This document shows, in pieces, positions 1,216 to 5,663 of a DNA stretch of 7,937 bases. Below the pieces are notes generated by a model. It was given only the letters and a program-made list of their open reading frames with translations. It was not told the DNA's origin and did no database searches. Source of the stretch: Pseudobdellovibrionaceae bacterium (GTDB lineage: Bacteria > Bdellovibrionota > Bdellovibrionia > Bdellovibrionales > Bdellovibrionaceae); contig JACMRP010000073.1 in NCBI GenBank assembly GCA_014376325.1, forward strand, positions 1 to 7,937, given 5' to 3'. Position 1 is the stretch's first letter. Each line of letters opens with the position of its first letter. The translations under genes were made by a program, and so were the position numbers.

Positions 1216-2922
1216 ATGCAGAAAATAGTTTCTTTGACCTTAGTCGTGGCGTTAGTGAGTGCCTGTGCGCACTCTCCAAGAACCGCTGATAGCGCGACTC
1301 CGTCGACCACGACAGCATCTACGACTACGACCGCAAATGCTCCGGATCCTTCGGCAGTAAAAGCTGGCGAAGAAGATGCTCCACCATTAAAAGACCTTGA
1401 ATCTTTTCGCGTAAAAGATGCGGAAGGCCCAAAAGTTGTCGATCAGGAATTGGAAGCGATTCCGACGGAAGTAAATCCGTTAGTGGAACAATGGGTTGGT
1501 TATTTTCAAGGCCGTGGCCGCCGTCATATGGAGCGTTATTTAGCGCGTTCGACTCGTTACGAAAAGTTGATGAAGAAAGTTTTGAAAGACAACGGTCTTC
1601 CTGAAGATTTGTTTTACATCGCACTGATCGAATCCGGTTTTAATACTCAAGCGCGTTCGCATGCGGCAGCGGTTGGTTACTGGCAGTTTATTCGTGGCAC
1701 CGGTAAGCGTTACGGATTAGAAATCAGCGCCCTCGTAGATGAACGCAAAGATCCGGTTTTAGCAACCCAGGCGGCGGCAGAATATTTCAAAGGTCTTTAT
1801 AGCGTTTTCGGATCTTGGTATTTGGCGATGGCTTCTTACAACGTTGGCGAAAACCGCGTAAAGCGTGAAGTGATGAATCACTACACTCGCGATTTTTGGG
1901 AACTTGCTAAGAAAAAACGTTTCCCGAAAGAGACCATTCATTACATTCCAAAATTCATCGCGGCTAAGTTGATCGCGAAAGATCCAGAAAAATACGGTTT
2001 TGCAGAATTAGACTACATGGCGCCGATAGAGTTCGATCACATCACGGTCGACACCGCGATCAACTTGCGTGTCATGGCCGAAAAAATGGGAATCAACTAC
2101 GAAGAGTTCAAAGATTTGAATCCGAAGTTTAAGGGCGAAGTAGCGCCACTGAAAGCGAATAACAAACTCGAGCTCCGTATTCCACCAGGAACTTCGGAAG
2201 CCGCAACCGTTGCCGCGAATCAGTCCGTTGTTGAAAAAGTGGAATACATTGCGGATGCTGGCGACACCGAAGTTTACCGCATCAAGCGCGGTGACAGTTT
2301 GCACACGGTAGCCCGCAAATATCGCACGACGGTGGCGTACCTGCGTGACCTGAATGACATTCCAAAGGGCAAGCGCCTGAAGGTTGGTATGAAGCTTTAC
2401 GTCCCGGACCGCGCACCGGTCGCGGCGAAACGTAAAGTCGTCTCTAAGGCTGCCGCTAAAAAATCTAAAAATGCGGTCAACGCTTCGTCTTCGGATGAAA
2501 ATGCGCCAGCAGTGGGCAGCAAAGTCGCGATGGCGGGCGGGCGTTTTTACACCGTGCAGTCTGGCGACACTTTGTCTTCGATCGCTAAGAAATACGCGGT
2601 TAGTATCAGCCAATTGAAGCGTGCGAACAATATCCGTCGCGGGCGACTGCTGAAGGTTGGCGTCCGTTTAGAAATTCCTGGTGATTCAAAAGCTCCGTCT
2701 TCAGATGACGGCGCAAAAAGACTGCCGGCTTCCAGCGCAAAGCGCGCCGGCGCTAACAAAGCAAAGTATCACGTTGTTAAGCGCGGAGAAAATCTTTCGA
2801 ACATCGCGGGCAAATACAAAATCTCCGTCTCCGATATCAAGAGTAAGAACAAGTTAAATAACATATCCAAGTTATTCGTAGGCGCTCGACTGCTGATCCC
2901 GGAAGCGCTGGCATCTAAGTAG
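1216..2922 (+). CDS. mltD: MltD-like membrane-bound lytic transglycosylase, lipoprotein with three LysM domains
   Basis: A 568-residue peptidoglycan lytic transglycosylase. The N-terminus is a lipoprotein signal: hydrophobic residues 3-13, then lipobox VSAC with the lipidated Cys at 17. The +2 residue is Ala, not Asp, which in E. coli rules would send it to the outer membrane. A Thr/Ser/Ala-rich linker covers about 22-45. The SLT domain spans about 115-235, with IALIESGF (catalytic Glu139), AVGYWQFIRGTG (152-163) and MASYNVGENRV (205-215), the MltD pattern. A LysM-like degenerate module lies at about 276-324, followed by three clear LysM repeats at 353-397, 443-488 and 518-562. Each starts YxVxxGDxL-like and ends with an LxIP-like motif; Lys/Ala-rich linkers separate them. 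GGAGG at 1207-1211 sits 4 bp before the ATG, a tight but usable spacing. A strong terminator follows. The LysM domains should anchor the enzyme to the wall. Confidence 0.95.
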   Translation: MQKIVSLTLVVALVSACAHSPRTADSATPSTTTASTTTTANAPDPSAVKAGEEDAPPLKDLESFRVKDAEGPKVVDQELEAIPTEVNPLVEQWVGYFQGRGRRHMERYLARSTRYEKLMKKVLKDNGLPEDLFYIALIESGFNTQARSHAAAVGYWQFIRGTGKRYGLEISALVDERKDPVLATQAAAEYFKGLYSVFGSWYLAMASYNVGENRVKREVMNHYTRDFWELAKKKRFPKETIHYIPKFIAAKLIAKDPEKYGFAELDYMAPIEFDHITVDTAINLRVMAEKMGINYEEFKDLNPKFKGEVAPLKANNKLELRIPPGTSEAATVAANQSVVEKVEYIADAGDTEVYRIKRGDSLHTVARKYRTTVAYLRDLNDIPKGKRLKVGMKLYVPDRAPVAAKRKVVSKAAAKKSKNAVNASSSDENAPAVGSKVAMAGGRFYTVQSGDTLSSIAKKYAVSISQLKRANNIRRGRLLKVGVRLEIPGDSKAPSSDDGAKRLPASSAKRAGANKAKYHVVKRGENLSNIAGKYKISVSDIKSKNKLNNISKLFVGARLLIPEALASK

Positions 2923-3163: not shown

Positions 3164-4144
3164 TTAGCGTACGCGTAGGCAGTTTGAATCGTAGGCAGCG
3201 GGAGTTATCAATCCAATATCAAAATCGTTCCAACGACCTCCGGAAGGAACGAGATTCACATCGTCTGAAAGCGAGGATGTCTCTACAATTGCTTCAGCTT
3301 CAATTATCGGCGGGTTGTTTTTGCACTCGCTCCATTTCCAAATGGGATCGTTATGTGCGGGCATTGTAGGGTGACAGGCGGTATTTACGATAAGTATAGA
3401 AGCTGTTTTTGCTTTGACGAGATCTTTGAGTGAAGGAACTTCTTTCGAGGCGCCCCCCTTGGTCCAATGAAATGCGCCGACGATGAGTATGCCGGCCTTG
3501 CACGTTCCATTTTCGAAATTTTTATCGATAGCGTTTGCCATAACTAGGTTTCGGTCTCGAAAACCTTGTTTGGACAACGACTTCACCTGATCAATGCGAG
3601 TGGGATGATTATCAATGGGAATAACTTTCAATCCAATTTTGTCGGCAGCTAAAATTTGGTTCTGCGATATCATCAGACCTATATTCTCTTGAGAATCGAA
3701 GGGCAGTTTTTGCTGCTCCTGAAGTTCTTTAAGTTTCTGACCAAAGCTATCTGGGTATTCGACAAAAAGGCAGTCGGTTTCTGGATTCGTTTTTTTTATA
3801 GAATATAGTATTTGTGGAAAACTGAGCGCTGATGGTGAACCGTGGTTTTCTGCGAGAACAACCAACTTGGGTCTTTTTGCGTTCAGTAAATTTTCGATCG
3901 CAGTTTGGTTGTCGATCAGCTTTACCGATTTCGAAAGGCCCTTAAGACGCGATTCACATTGGGGGTGGTCACTCATCGCAAGCTTCTCGGCCATTTTTAT
4001 CGGAACGCAACGATCCGGGAAAAAAATATTACCGCGAGTTAAATTTGCGACTCCGTTGACCAGCTCAAGCAAATAAGTATCGTTTGCTAAGGACAGAGCT
4101 GGCAAACTAATGAGGGTGAAAAGTAGTAAAGTAAACTTAGACAT
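3164..4144 (-). CDS. Exported protein with TIKI/TraB/ChaN/EreA-superfamily-like motifs
   Basis: A 326-residue protein with a clear Sec signal peptide: MSK, a hydrophobic core, then cleavage probably after SLA at residue 20, so it should act in the periplasm or outside. The mature part has VVLAENHGS (95-103; Glu99, His101), CLFVEYPDS (125-133; Glu129), VIPIDNH (174-180), RDRNLVMANAI (196-206) and ILIVGAFHWTK (219-229; His226). The order ENHG, a downstream acidic strand, an RN pair and VGxxH recalls the TIKI/TraB/ChaN/EreA group of putative metal-dependent hydrolases. The assignment rests on motif memory, not a search. Seven cysteines could form disulfides. The ATG is preceded directly by an in-frame TAG and has no good Shine-Dalgarno sequence. 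The gene looks AT-rich: three sampled 60-base stretches (3601, 3661, 3781) count 35, 43 and 35 % G+C, against 58 and 52 % at 2281 and 7201, which may mean later acquisition. It lies downstream of a c-di-GMP riboswitch on the same strand. Confidence 0.8.
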   Translation of the reverse strand: MSKFTLLLFTLISLPALSLANDTYLLELVNGVANLTRGNIFFPDRCVPIKMAEKLAMSDHPQCESRLKGLSKSVKLIDNQTAIENLLNAKRPKLVVLAENHGSPSALSFPQILYSIKKTNPETDCLFVEYPDSFGQKLKELQEQQKLPFDSQENIGLMISQNQILAADKIGLKVIPIDNHPTRIDQVKSLSKQGFRDRNLVMANAIDKNFENGTCKAGILIVGAFHWTKGGASKEVPSLKDLVKAKTASILIVNTACHPTMPAHNDPIWKWSECKNNPPIIEAEAIVETSSLSDDVNLVPSGGRWNDFDIGLITPAAYDSNCLRVR

Positions 4145-4264: not shown

Positions 4265-4308
4265 AAAAAATAGGGGCTTGCAGAAAATAATCATTATAAA
4301 CTGCAAGC
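4265..4308 (-). terminator. Candidate intrinsic terminator downstream of the riboswitch
   Basis: Minus-strand arm GCTTGCAG (4308-4301) pairs perfectly with CTGCAAGC (4283-4276). The 17-nt loop contains a further small ATAAT/ATTAT inverted repeat that can extend the stem. After the stem comes CCCTA, then six T (4270-4265). The T-run is set off by 5 nt from the stem, which makes it weaker than the terminator at 2961. It lies about 86 nt beyond the aptamer, directly after a tiny ORF whose stop codon overlaps the first base of the stem. It could end the riboswitch RNA or be its switchable expression platform. Confidence 0.5.
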
Positions 4309-4367
4309 TAAGGGGAATGAAACCAATCCTTGAATGAATTTTGTAGACTTGAACCTTCCATTTGCAT
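4308..4367 (-). CDS. Candidate 19-codon small ORF between riboswitch and terminator
   Basis: Encodes MQMEGSSLQNSFKDWFHSP. The ATG (4367-4365) has AGGA at 4379-4376 with 8 bp spacing, a good Shine-Dalgarno arrangement. The stop TAG (4310-4308) shares its last base with the terminator stem. The SD lies only about 15 nt after the aptamer P1 3' strand, where a translational expression platform would be expected. GAGG of the SD (4380-4377) is complementary to CCUC (4478-4475) just before the aptamer core, so ligand-dependent SD exposure is conceivable. Too short for coding statistics. It has no signal peptide or known motif. It may be a real peptide, a leader peptide or chance. Confidence 0.4.
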   Translation of the reverse strand: MQMEGSSLQNSFKDWFHSP

Positions 4368-4393
4368 CACCTAATTCCTCGGGCGACTCATAA

Positions 4394-4478
4394 CCTTTGG
4401 CAGTCTGGCTGGCTGGCTCTTGCGAGCTGAAGCCCCTGTAGCTTTGCGTCCCGTCATTTCTAACGGTTTGCCTTGAGG
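4394..4478 (-). promoter_or_regulatory. c-di-GMP-I (GEMM-I) riboswitch aptamer
   Basis: Read on the minus strand. P1 is formed by GGCA (4472-4469) with UGCC (4402-4399), extended by CCU (4478-4476) with AGG (4396-4394). AAGGCAAACC (4474-4465) is the conserved entry segment. The next hairpin is CCGUUA-GAAA-UGACGG, with the conserved GAAA tetraloop. It is followed by the invariant GGACGCAAAGC (4451-4441). The second arm ends in hairpin GCUC-GCAA-GAGC (4427-4416) and closes with CAGCCAG and CUGCC, as in the family consensus. By alignment to the Vibrio Vc2 aptamer from memory, the ligand-contacting G20 corresponds to G4472 and the intercalating A47 to A4445. Keeping G at position 20 points to c-di-GMP rather than cGAMP. 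The nearest downstream genes are a 19-codon ORF and then, 250 nt away, the exported-enzyme gene. Confidence 0.93.
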
Positions 4479-4482
4479 CAAA
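4467..4482 (-). promoter_or_regulatory. Hairpin that competes with riboswitch P1
   Basis: TTTGCC (4482-4477), loop TCAA, GGCAAA (4472-4467) form a perfect 6-bp stem on the minus strand. Its 3' arm contains the GGCA strand of aptamer P1 and the conserved AAAC entry bases, so this hairpin and the ligand-binding fold cannot coexist. It would form first during transcription. It may be a folding checkpoint or simply a consequence of the conserved bases. Confidence 0.45.
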
Positions 4483-4586
4483 AGAAGGACTTAATCCTTA
4501 GAGAAGTACCGCTGGGAACCTCCTATTGGAAATTCTGGGTTAATAATTCTCTTCATTTGCGTAGTAAAATTTTTGTCTTAGCTTCG

Positions 4587-4631
4587 TCACTTTGGGCTTT
4601 TGTCATTTTGACTGCGATGGCAGATCTTCAT
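4587..4631 (-). CDS. Candidate 14-codon ORF behind a perfect AGGAGG, upstream of the riboswitch
   Basis: A perfect AGGAGG (4643-4638) lies 6 bp before ATG (4631-4629), the best ribosome binding site in the window. Yet the frame encodes only MKICHRSQNDKSPK before TGA. A second, +1-shifted ORF overlaps it (ATG 4606-4604 to TGA 4555-4553) and encodes MTKAQSDEAKTKILLRK. The upstream part of that second frame stays open back to the SD-led ATG, so one indel would join them into about 25 codons. It may be a decayed small gene, a leader peptide upstream of the aptamer, or programmed frameshifting. No known motif. Confidence 0.3.
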   Translation of the reverse strand: MKICHRSQNDKSPK

Positions 4632-4650
4632 ATGATTCCTCCTGTGTGCC

Positions 4651-4679
4651 GACCCTCGAAGCGGGTTGTTAACCGGGTC
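4651..4679 (-). promoter_or_regulatory. 5' leader hairpin region between promoter and AGGAGG
   Basis: On the minus strand GACCC (4679-4675) can pair with GGGTC (4655-4651), and GGTT with AACC (4674-4664 region) makes an inner stem. The same ACACAG hexamer flanks the structure on both sides (about 4685-4680 and 4647-4642). It places a folded element just upstream of the SD at 4643. Function unknown; the stems are short. Confidence 0.3.
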
Positions 4680-4697
4680 TGTGTGTTCAACTCACTC

Positions 4698-4727
4698 AGA
4701 ATAACCGGTCCTAGGTCGACTTTTCAA
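4698..4727 (-). promoter_or_regulatory. Candidate sigma70 promoter for the riboswitch RNA
   Basis: TTGAAA (4727-4722, 5/6 match) and TATTCT (4703-4698, 4/6 match) are separated by 18 bp on the minus strand, with transcription expected to start near 4691. It lies 134 bp beyond the Mrp stop codon. A second weaker pair, TTTACT and TATTAA about 17 bp apart (near 4570-4540), is closer to the aptamer. I found no good FliA-type (TAAA/GCCGATAA) promoter. Confidence 0.4.
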
Positions 4728-4860
4728 GAGGAGCGAATTCGAATCTCAATTAAGTTCGTTTCGCGTACAGAAACCGCGTATCGCACTGAGAATCTCCCTC
4801 GAACCGTCGCAAAAAAAGACGAGGAATGTGATTTTCAGAGTCAAAAAACTTTGATCGAAC

Positions 4861-5649
4861 TTAAACCGGGAGCAATTCGCGAATGCGATTCGCGATCGCC
4901 AGAAACTCTTGCGCTTCGGCGCTGGATTTATTCGCCTCGACGATGGGAACGCCGGCTTCAGAGGCTAAACCAACATTTGGATGAAATGGAACTTCGCCGA
5001 GCTTCACGATGTTCTGTGATTTCATGTAGGCCTCTAGCTCGCCCTTAGGGAACAACTGCATCCGTTCGCCATTTGCCGGGTTGATCATGTACGACATATT
5101 TTCGACAAGGCCGAGCAACGGGATGCCCACGCGTTGGTACATGTCGACCGCGCGCTTAACGTCGGTCAGCGACACGTTCTGAGGAGTCGAAACCATCAAC
5201 GCCCCCGCGACCGGGACTTTTTGCGCGAGCGATAACTGGACGTCGCCAGTGCCCGGGGGAAGATCTATCACGAGGTAATCGAGTTCTCCCCATTGCACGT
5301 CGCGCAGGAATTGGTCCATGGCCTTAAATAGCATTGGACCCCGCCATACGACTGCCGCGTTTTCGTCGATCAAGAAGCCAATGCTCATCAGTTTGACGTT
5401 GTAACGGGTGATAGGTTCAATCTTTTGATCGGGCGTGATATTCGGTTTCTGGTTCAGACTGCCCAACATGCGAGGAATGCTCGGACCGTAGATGTCCGCA
5501 TCCAACAAGCCCACCCGGTTTTTTTGAGCAAGGGCCGTGGCTAGATTTGTGGCAACGGTGCTTTTGCCGACGCCGCCTTTGCCCGAACTCACAGCTATAA
5601 TGTGTTTAACGCCTGGGATTGCCTGCTGTTGATCGAAGGGACTTGCCAT
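4861..5649 (-). CDS. mrp: Mrp/ApbC-family P-loop ATPase, cysteine-free
   Basis: Cytosolic ATPase of the Mrp/NBP35 family, whose members usually act as Fe-S cluster carriers. The start is taken as ATG at 5649-5647 because AGGAG lies 7 bp upstream (5661-5657). A longer TTG start at 5688 has no such support. This gives 262 residues: deviant Walker A SSGKGGVGKST (21-31), LLDADIYGPSIPRML (48-62), VVWRGPM (100-106), Walker B-like YLVIDLPPGTGD (125-136), STPQNVSLTDV (154-164) and GLVENMSY (180-187). It is a stand-alone ATPase core without an N-terminal MIP18/DUF59 domain. After VENMSY, many relatives carry a CxxC that holds the cluster; here the sequence reads MINPANGERM, and the protein contains no Cys at all. 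It is divergent from the J-like gene, with 52 bp between starts. It may run on into the riboswitch region, as I see no clear terminator. Confidence 0.95.
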   Translation of the reverse strand: MASPFDQQQAIPGVKHIIAVSSGKGGVGKSTVATNLATALAQKNRVGLLDADIYGPSIPRMLGSLNQKPNITPDQKIEPITRYNVKLMSIGFLIDENAAVVWRGPMLFKAMDQFLRDVQWGELDYLVIDLPPGTGDVQLSLAQKVPVAGALMVSTPQNVSLTDVKRAVDMYQRVGIPLLGLVENMSYMINPANGERMQLFPKGELEAYMKSQNIVKLGEVPFHPNVGLASEAGVPIVEANKSSAEAQEFLAIANRIRELLPV

Positions 5650-5663
5650 CTTGGAACTCCTGC

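What the first reader, a model, noticed from the sequence alone, without database searches (positions are those of the whole stretch)
4265..4727. Apparently self-contained c-di-GMP-sensing RNA locus on the minus strand
A textbook GEMM-I aptamer (GGACGCAAAGC, GAAA tetraloop hairpin, CUGCC closing) sits in a 715-bp gene-free gap. It has its own promoter-like elements upstream and a terminator-like hairpin downstream, with only tiny ORFs between. The layout resembles what I recall of the massively expressed Bdellovibrio merRNA, proposed to hold c-di-GMP, rather than a normal riboswitch just ahead of its target gene. If so, the RNA itself may be the product.
Basis: partly seen in the sequence, partly recalled or inferred. 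Interest (0 to 1): 0.85.

Follow-up and report, generated by a model that had tools for sequence, protein, structure and literature searches.

The report
c-di-GMP-sensing merRNA carrying two micro-ORFs
This is a relative of merRNA, an extremely abundant RNA of Bdellovibrio predators that carries a sensor for the signal molecule c-di-GMP, and comparison with relatives suggests that this supposedly non-coding RNA also carries two conserved tiny genes, one of which starts inside a helix that closes around the sensor.

Summary
A c-di-GMP-I aptamer (RF01051, 61.8 bits, cut-off 35) lies at 4482-4396 minus, between a promoter aligned with that of Bdellovibrio bacteriovorus merRNA (4727-4698) and a terminator ending at 4265. 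The merRNA comparison holds: published HD100 merRNA is its homologue. 90 of 143 genomes of the class match the aptamer, once each; in 81 of those 90 loci, within 5-kb flanks, mrp lies upstream on the same strand, a convergent lytic-transglycosylase gene downstream, or both. "Only tiny ORFs" and "the RNA itself may be the product" need revising: the RNA holds two conserved micro-ORFs. sORF1 (4631-4587, MKICHRSQNDKSPK) belongs to a set with a codon-level signature of selection. sORF2 (4361-4308, MEGSSLQNSFKDWFHSP), just after the aptamer, keeps its frame through seven lengths in 33 of 35 unique sequences. A helix closing the aptamer includes the sORF2 start; one pair covaries. HD100 merRNA has both ORFs, although its authors found no conserved ORF downstream of the riboswitch. 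Best reading: a stand-alone c-di-GMP riboswitch RNA that gates micropeptide translation. Binding, transcription and translation are untested here.

The parts
4698..4727 (-). sigma-70-type promoter, TTGAAA-N18-TATTCT; predicted transcript start about 4690
   Evidence: consensus match; aligned with TTGAAA-N18-TATCCT of HD100 and relatives
4587..4631 (-). sORF1, 14 codons plus stop, MKICHRSQNDKSPK*, Shine-Dalgarno AGGAGG 6 nt before the ATG
   Evidence: C-terminal D..P[KE]* pattern in 53 of 90 loci; synonymous-biased substitution among relatives
4518..4524 (-). SD2: AGGAGGT without a start codon at the usual spacing; possible alternative partner of the P0 5' strand or of the end of sORF2
   Evidence: GGAGG in 77 of 89 class loci against 4 of 89 in an upstream control stretch and 0 of 89 on the reverse complement; ATG at SD spacing in only 5 of 77
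4483..4490 (-). 5' strand of helix P0 (CCTTCT core)
4396..4482 (-). c-di-GMP-I (GEMM-I) aptamer, RF01051; its first part also forms the hairpin UUUGCC-UCAA-GGCAAA (about 4482-4467)
   Evidence: 61.8 bits; hairpin in the consensus folds
4352..4359 (-). 3' strand of helix P0 (GGAAGG, beginning with the G of the sORF2 ATG)
   Evidence: variable pair CG 33, AU 6, UA 1 of 40
4308..4361 (-). sORF2, 17 codons plus stop, MEGSSLQNSFKDWFHSP*
   Evidence: in frame in 33 of 35 unique sequences with seven lengths
4265..4308 (-). intrinsic terminator: stem GCTTGCAG/CTGCAAGC (4308-4301 with 4283-4276), then CCCTATTTTTT; the stem begins at the last base of the sORF2 stop
   Evidence: by the same criterion 81 of 88 class loci, against 11 of 86 upstream control stretches
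4861..5652 (-). mrp/apbC-like P-loop ATPase gene, the conserved upstream neighbour
   Evidence: PF10609, E 2.3e-95; upstream on the same strand within the 5-kb flank in 61 of 90 relatives, within 700 nt in 34
1216..2922 (+). SLT + LysM lytic transglycosylase gene, the conserved convergent downstream neighbour
   Evidence: downstream and convergent within the 5-kb flank in 62 of 90 relatives
3164..4144 (-). 326-aa protein of unknown family lying between the RNA and the transglycosylase gene; not a conserved target
   Evidence: no Pfam or NCBIfam match; tblastn match in the flanks of 0 of 90 relatives' loci

Best explanation
The locus is the merRNA gene of a Bdellovibrio-like bacterium: a stand-alone RNA of about 425 nt with its own promoter and terminator, one GEMM-I c-di-GMP aptamer and two micro-ORFs. 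Shown by comparison: homology to HD100 merRNA, single-copy and positional conservation, peptide-level selection on sORF1 in relatives, frame preservation of sORF2, and a conserved helix (P0, covarying at one pair) that closes the aptamer and contains the last base of the sORF2 start codon and codons 2-3. Inferred: the RNA is a translational riboswitch whose regulated gene is sORF2 itself. In the predicted consensus fold the start codon sits in P0 and the first aptamer bases sit in a competing hairpin (UUUGCC-UCAA-GGCAAA). c-di-GMP binding should free that hairpin's 5' half to pair with CAAAGG just 3' of the aptamer, using part of the P0 5' strand, and so change access to the sORF2 start. The sign (on or off) is not determined. 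sORF1, with a strong Shine-Dalgarno site, would be a leader or a second product. At merRNA-like abundance the RNA would also bind much of the cell's c-di-GMP.
For: RF01051 match. HD100 merRNA coordinates and abundance from PMC3627812 (passages) contain the G017 aptamer, both sORFs and the T-run. 90 of 143 class genomes have the aptamer, each once; a 138-position model of the extended RNA gives one match in each of 121 matching genomes of 368 and scores the window 127.7 bits. Within 5-kb flanks mrp is upstream on the same strand in 61 of 90 and the transglycosylase convergent downstream in 62 of 90. sORF1: 53 of 90 loci have a Shine-Dalgarno-preceded ORF ending D..P[KE]*, against 1 of 90 on the reverse complement and 0.15 per shuffled set; single-difference codon pairs in 20 unique 14-codon versions are 631 synonymous to 296 not in frame, against 65/799 and 140/729 out of frame. 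sORF2: 33 of 35 unique sequences in frame, distances 30-54 nt; 37 of 46 end DWFHSP*. P0: variable pair CG 33, AU 6, UA 1 of 40; covariation score and cells changed on both sides reached by 0 of 500 shuffles.
Against: No expression, translation or binding data for this organism. The sORF2 box is missing from 38 of 91 loci, so sORF2 is not class-wide. Its last codons are almost invariant in nucleotides, which points to RNA-level constraint too; five of 46 run past the usual stop (L117, L103, L105, L107, L118) and L126, L188 and L142 are out of frame. P0 covariation rests on one variable pair among related sequences: the two measures least fooled by relatedness (pairs changed on both sides, 1; further pair types, 6) did not exceed the shuffles (433 and 391 of 500 as high), and the outermost pair is unpaired in 14 of 40. 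The helix expected in the bound state (CCUUUG:CAAAGG) pairs in 40 of 40 but gives no covariation. The single-sequence fold of the window is not better than shuffles (z -1.0). HD100 sORF1 ends DDELK, without the proline motif, and the window's own sORF1 is not in the 20-member group (it is in the wider set).
Confidence: 0.55

Rival explanations
1. A purely non-coding c-di-GMP reservoir, as proposed for HD100 merRNA: very many aptamers soak up c-di-GMP and release it on prey entry; the micro-ORFs are incidental.
For: HD100 merRNA reaches 2,038,479 RPKM in attack phase against 407 in growth phase, and its authors proposed storage (PMC3627812, passages). Stand-alone, single-copy aptamer in 90 of 143 genomes.
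Against: Does not predict synonymous-biased evolution of sORF1 or frame preservation of sORF2.
Confidence: 0.22
2. The short ORFs serve the RNA rather than a peptide: ribosome loading or stalling at sORF1 (proline-rich C-terminus before the stop in many relatives) and at SD2 controls folding, stability or decay of the RNA, with c-di-GMP as a second input.
For: Start-less GGAGG in 77 of 89 loci; proline-containing C-termini such as DPPPK/E*; nucleotide-level invariance of the sORF2 end.
Against: The proline motif is absent in HD100 (DDELK); no stalling data; residues before the motif are also conserved within the 14-codon group.
Confidence: 0.17
3. An ordinary cis-acting riboswitch of the 326-aa gene at 4144-3164.
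For: Same strand, about 250 nt downstream.
Against: A terminator lies between; the gene has no match in the flanks of 90 relatives' loci; in 60 of 84 loci the next ORF of at least 90 aa is on the opposite strand.
Confidence: 0.03

Closest known systems
merRNA of Bdellovibrio bacteriovorus HD100 (PMC3627812)
   Same: GEMM-I aptamer, position downstream of mrp, promoter, length of about 425-445 nt, terminator, extended sequence around the aptamer; both micro-ORFs are present in it too
   Different: HD100 sORF1 is MRTHEHHDDELK*, here MKICHRSQNDKSPK*; in HD100 no transglycosylase or 326-aa homologue was found within 5 kb, while here both lie downstream; abundance here is unknown
c-di-GMP-I (GEMM-I) riboswitch, RF01051
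   Same: Full-length match above the gathering score
   Different: No downstream structural gene evidently under its control; the nearest candidate target is a 17-codon ORF inside the same short transcript
Single-copy GEMM-I RNAs of other classes of the phylum (46 loci)
   Same: One aptamer per matching genome; complementary tracts on both sides of the aptamer in many: GAAGAGG upstream with CCTCTTC downstream in 27 of 46
   Different: Different flanking tracts, no mrp or SLT2 match in the flanks; micro-ORFs of this kind were not noticed by eye there but not searched for systematically

Membership tests
c-di-GMP-I riboswitch aptamer (RF01051) | Covariance-model score above the gathering threshold over the full model | tested here: met
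   61.8 bits against 35, model 1-87 of 87
c-di-GMP-I riboswitch aptamer (RF01051) | Binds c-di-GMP | not testable with these tools
   needs in-line probing or ITC
merRNA | Homologous sequence and structure beyond the aptamer, same genomic place | tested here: met
   extended model 127.7 bits in the window, 149.3 bits in G017, which is HD100 by inference (both sequences are in the training alignment); mrp upstream in both; aligned promoter
merRNA | Discrete transcript of about 445 nt with own promoter and terminator | tested here: inconclusive
   promoter and terminator predicted, about 425 nt; no transcript data
merRNA | Massive attack-phase expression | not testable with these tools
   published for HD100 only (passages)
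merRNA | Authors' statement: no conserved ORF downstream of the riboswitch (a description by its authors, not a defining feature) | tested here: not met
   sORF2 is present in the window, in HD100 itself and in relatives, so the type member does not meet it either
Classical cis riboswitch of the 3164-4144 gene | Aptamer and expression platform in one leader with the target gene, conserved association | tested here: not met
   terminator between; gene unmatched in the flanks of 90 of 90 relatives' loci
Leader or arrest peptide (sORF1) | Short ORF with Shine-Dalgarno site under peptide-level selection | tested here: met
Leader or arrest peptide (sORF1) | Ribosome stalls on it and this changes downstream RNA folding | not testable with these tools
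   needs toeprinting or ribosome profiling

The most novel reading that the evidence does not exclude
merRNA is not a non-coding sponge but a messenger for one or two micropeptides of about 12-18 residues: a stand-alone c-di-GMP riboswitch RNA whose only regulated gene is a micro-ORF that starts inside its own closing helix, so that one of the most abundant attack-phase RNAs of Bdellovibrio couples c-di-GMP to production of a tiny, previously unnoticed peptide used in the predatory cycle.
Probability: 0.38. Interest if true: 0.87.

Novelty: new variant of a known kind. Interest (0 to 1): 0.72.

Why it matters
merRNA was reported with about as many attack-phase reads as all protein-coding genes of B. 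bacteriovorus together (PMC3627812, passages), yet its role has been a speculation about c-di-GMP storage. Two conserved micro-ORFs, one with a codon-level signature of selection and one starting inside the helix that closes the aptamer, give concrete, single-codon tests of what the RNA does. The comparison also extends the RNA to 90 of 143 sampled genomes of its class, always single-copy where found, which suggests a core element of the lineage.

Tried and rejected
Cis-regulation of the 326-aa gene: rejected. Single-sequence folding of the window transcript: uninformative, z -1.0, 19 of 100 shuffles fold at least as well. The Rfam hits istR (26.8 bits, cut-off 45) and S_pombe_snR96 (19.8 bits, cut-off 100): below their gathering scores, taken as chance. 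Simple terminator scan: did not list the 4308-4276 stem, which has a 17-nt loop. SD2 as the ribosome site of a third ORF: not favoured, since only 5 of 77 loci have ATG and 11 of 77 any start at the right spacing. More genomes through an extended model R1: it matched 121 of 368 genomes, all among those already found with RF01051. Broken contigs as the reason for absences: the mrp contigs of L001 and L003 end 660 and 389 nt after mrp, but L001 seems to show another gene there (read by eye), so this is not established; the other genomes without a match were not examined. Literature: the titles and abstract beginnings listed showed no paper on ORFs in merRNA. I read passages of PMC3627812 and PMC11323537; of all other papers I saw only the search listing and the start of the abstract. 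The searched library holds open-licence PMC papers only.

Selection effects: alignment A1 (40 of the 42 anchored, unique loci; L136 and L130 left out, L182 re-anchored by hand) was chosen by the motifs TTTG and ATGGAAG, so the invariant part of P0 is partly selected; the covarying column pair (3 with 174) is outside both motifs. The sORF1 pattern was read off the same loci before one search counted it. The 61 sORF1s of 90 loci were chosen by C-terminal patterns, some of them (DDELK, DPGYE, SRVPK, SRAPE) added after looking. L160 was left out because its upstream flank is 22 nt. Sequences are related, so permutation and codon-pair counts are not independent probabilities. My terminator criterion finds 81 of 88 downstream stretches and 11 of 86 upstream control stretches. 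I did not test other riboswitch families across the genomes, nor compare with GEMM-I loci outside the phylum apart from the 14 control genomes of the genome search (0 matches).

Full report
1. The observation. The c-di-GMP-I aptamer is real: RF01051 matches 4482-4396 on the minus strand over all 87 model positions with 61.8 bits (gathering score 35). Upstream lies TTGAAA-N18-TATTCT (4727-4698), a 9-of-12 consensus match that alone would mean little (8 such sites against 2.4 expected in that stretch). It aligns with TTGAAA-N18-TATCCT in HD100 and relatives. Downstream is an 8-bp stem, GCTTGCAG/CTGCAAGC, with a 17-nt loop and the tail CCCTATTTTTT ending at 4265.

2. Relation to merRNA. PMC3627812 (passages read) places merRNA of HD100 at 1,073,741-1,074,185 on the reverse strand, 445 nt, 2,038,479 RPKM in attack phase and 407 in growth phase. 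In G017 the -10 box ends 16 nt before the published 5' end and the published 3' end lies just past the T-run. The window RNA is its homologue: mrp upstream on the same strand in both, aligned sequence before, in and after the aptamer (the printed output was cut within the aptamer), and 127.7 bits to a 138-position model of the extended RNA that scores G017 at 149.3 bits (both sequences are among the 40 that trained the model).

3. Distribution and place. In the class of G001, 90 of 143 genomes match RF01051, each exactly once; 0 of 14 control genomes match. In the phylum it is 136 of 368 (135 over the cut-off), again one each (strict filters were used and can lose weak matches). In the 90 class loci, with flanks of up to 5 kb, tblastn finds mrp upstream on the same strand in 61 (within 700 nt in 34), the SLT/LysM transglycosylase downstream and convergent in 62, either in 81, both in 42, neither in 9; of these nine, three have under 600 nt of downstream flank and one under 400 nt of upstream flank. 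mrp lies inverted on the downstream side in two loci. The 326-aa gene of the window has no match in any of the 90. A terminator by my criterion follows the aptamer in 81 of 88 class loci with enough sequence, window included, against 11 of 86 upstream control stretches. The nearest downstream ORF of at least 90 aa is on the opposite strand in 60 of 84. This is not the usual layout of a leader riboswitch. The authors of PMC3627812 could not find conservation outside the Bdellovibrio lineage; here the aptamer RNA is found across the class.

4. sORF1. A Shine-Dalgarno-ranked scan and a pattern search find in 61 of 90 loci a short ORF beginning 112-260 nt before the aptamer. In the window it is MKICHRSQNDKSPK* (4631-4587, AGGAGG 6 nt before the ATG), in HD100 MRTHEHHDDELK*, in other clades MKNRIHDHHDEPPK*, MYKLPKDWRLDSPPK*, MAKRPKDWRLDPPPK*. 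The C-terminal pattern (D, one to two residues, P, K or E, stop) was read off these loci and then counted: 53 of 90 loci have such an ORF, against 1 of 90 on the reverse complement and 0.15 per set of dinucleotide shuffles, 20 sets. Among 20 unique 14-codon versions (the window's is not among them), codon pairs that differ by one base are synonymous 631 times and not 296 times in the ORF's frame, but 65/799 and 140/729 in the other two frames; over 51 unique eight-codon tails the synonymous share is 0.59 against 0.21 expected. Pairs are not independent, but the contrast between frames is clear. sORF1 evolves as a coding sequence.

5. sORF2. Right after the aptamer 53 of 91 loci have a box close to TTTCATTCCCC. 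From ATGGAAG to the box the distance is a multiple of three in 33 of 35 unique sequences (44 of 46 in all), with seven different lengths from 30 to 54 nt; six of seven further loci have an in-frame ATG. Of the 46, 37 end DWFHSP*, 5 contain DWFHSP and run on, 2 end RFHSP*, 2 are out of frame. In the window it is MEGSSLQNSFKDWFHSP* (4361-4308), in HD100 MEGTNTYKDWFHSP* at offset 353 of the published RNA. Against it: 38 loci lack the box; L126, L188 and L142 are out of frame; and the end of the ORF is almost invariant in nucleotides, so an RNA role for that stretch is likely as well. PMC3627812 states that no conserved ORF was found downstream of the riboswitch; this analysis disagrees, for HD100 itself too.

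6. Structure. RNAalifold on three separate groups of relatives (24, 13 and 6 sequences) and on a 40-sequence alignment gives one core: a helix P0 between CCUUCC just 5' of the aptamer and GGAAGG just 3' of it. The first base of GGAAGG is the G of the sORF2 AUG. At the variable pair (columns 3 and 174) the 40 sequences have CG 33, AU 6, UA 1, none unpaired; the next pair outwards is unpaired in 14 of 40. For P0 and the hairpin below counted together, 0 of 500 shuffles reach the covariation score, the share of paired cells or the number of cells changed on both sides, and slid versions pair in 29-60% of cells against 96.7%. The number of pairs changed on both sides (1) and of further pair types (6) is not above the shuffles (433 and 391 of 500 as high), so the covariation evidence is one pair deep. 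A separate permutation on 20 unique strand combinations from 48 loci gives p 0.0077. The hairpin UUUGCC-UCAA-GGCAAA uses the first aptamer bases and pairs in 98.7% of cells, with few changes. The alternative CCUUUG:CAAAGG is possible in 40 of 40, without covariation. A start-less GGAGG (SD2) lies 27-75 nt before the aptamer in 77 of 89 loci, against 4 of 89 in a control stretch, and could pair with the P0 5' strand or with the end of sORF2. The fold of the single window transcript is no better than shuffles.

7. Mechanism. Shown: homology, single copy, place, peptide-level selection on sORF1 in relatives, frame preservation of sORF2, conservation of P0. Inferred: in the ligand-free fold the sORF2 start is in P0 and the aptamer's first bases are in the competing hairpin; c-di-GMP would pull those bases into the aptamer and let CCUUUG pair with CAAAGG, which takes two bases of the P0 5' strand and so changes access to the sORF2 start. 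Whether that turns sORF2 on or off cannot be told from sequence. That proline-rich C-termini such as DPPPK* slow ribosomes is recalled general knowledge (EF-P biology), not tested. High abundance would make the RNA a buffer of c-di-GMP at the same time; the two roles are compatible.

8. Novelty. The kind (merRNA, GEMM-I) is known. New here, as far as the listings reach (open-licence PMC only), are the two micro-ORFs, P0 around the sORF2 start, and the class-wide single-copy distribution. I rate it a new variant of a known kind.

Noticed in passing
window 4144-3164 (minus): 326-aa protein with an apparent signal peptide and motifs such as LAENHGSP and VGAFHW that recall the TraB/ChaN/erythromycin-esterase-like superfamily (recalled resemblance); no Pfam or NCBIfam match.
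   Followed up: no
L189-L234 (46 loci outside the class): Single-copy GEMM-I RNAs of other classes of the phylum have their own pairing tracts: GAAGAGG upstream with CCTCTTC downstream in 27 of 46, and TTTGAA beside the aptamer with TTCAAAGG downstream in 24 of 46, which looks like an anti-aptamer switch; no mrp or SLT2 match in the flanks. They may be a second stand-alone c-di-GMP RNA type.
   Followed up: partly
L173, L143, L144, just downstream of the aptamer: In these loci a different proline-rich micro-ORF with a strong Shine-Dalgarno site follows the aptamer: MDITPIFRPPYPPPK..., MDTMPIFSPPTPPPK..., MGFNCCLHPPYSPQ*.
   Followed up: no
53 genomes of the class without a match: RF01051 is not found in 53 of 143 genomes. 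For two the mrp contig ends within 660 nt of mrp (L001, L003), which may or may not be the reason; the rest were not examined. Real losses would allow a comparison with lifestyle.
   Followed up: partly
L099, about 50-80 nt before the aptamer: GGUUGGAUC upstream of SD2 in HD100 and several Bdellovibrio repeats the end of 16S rRNA (recalled), while SD2 itself is complementary to it; may be chance.
   Followed up: no
window 4805-4930 (+): Sub-threshold istR match (26.8 bits, cut-off 45) at the end of mrp; taken as chance.
   Followed up: no
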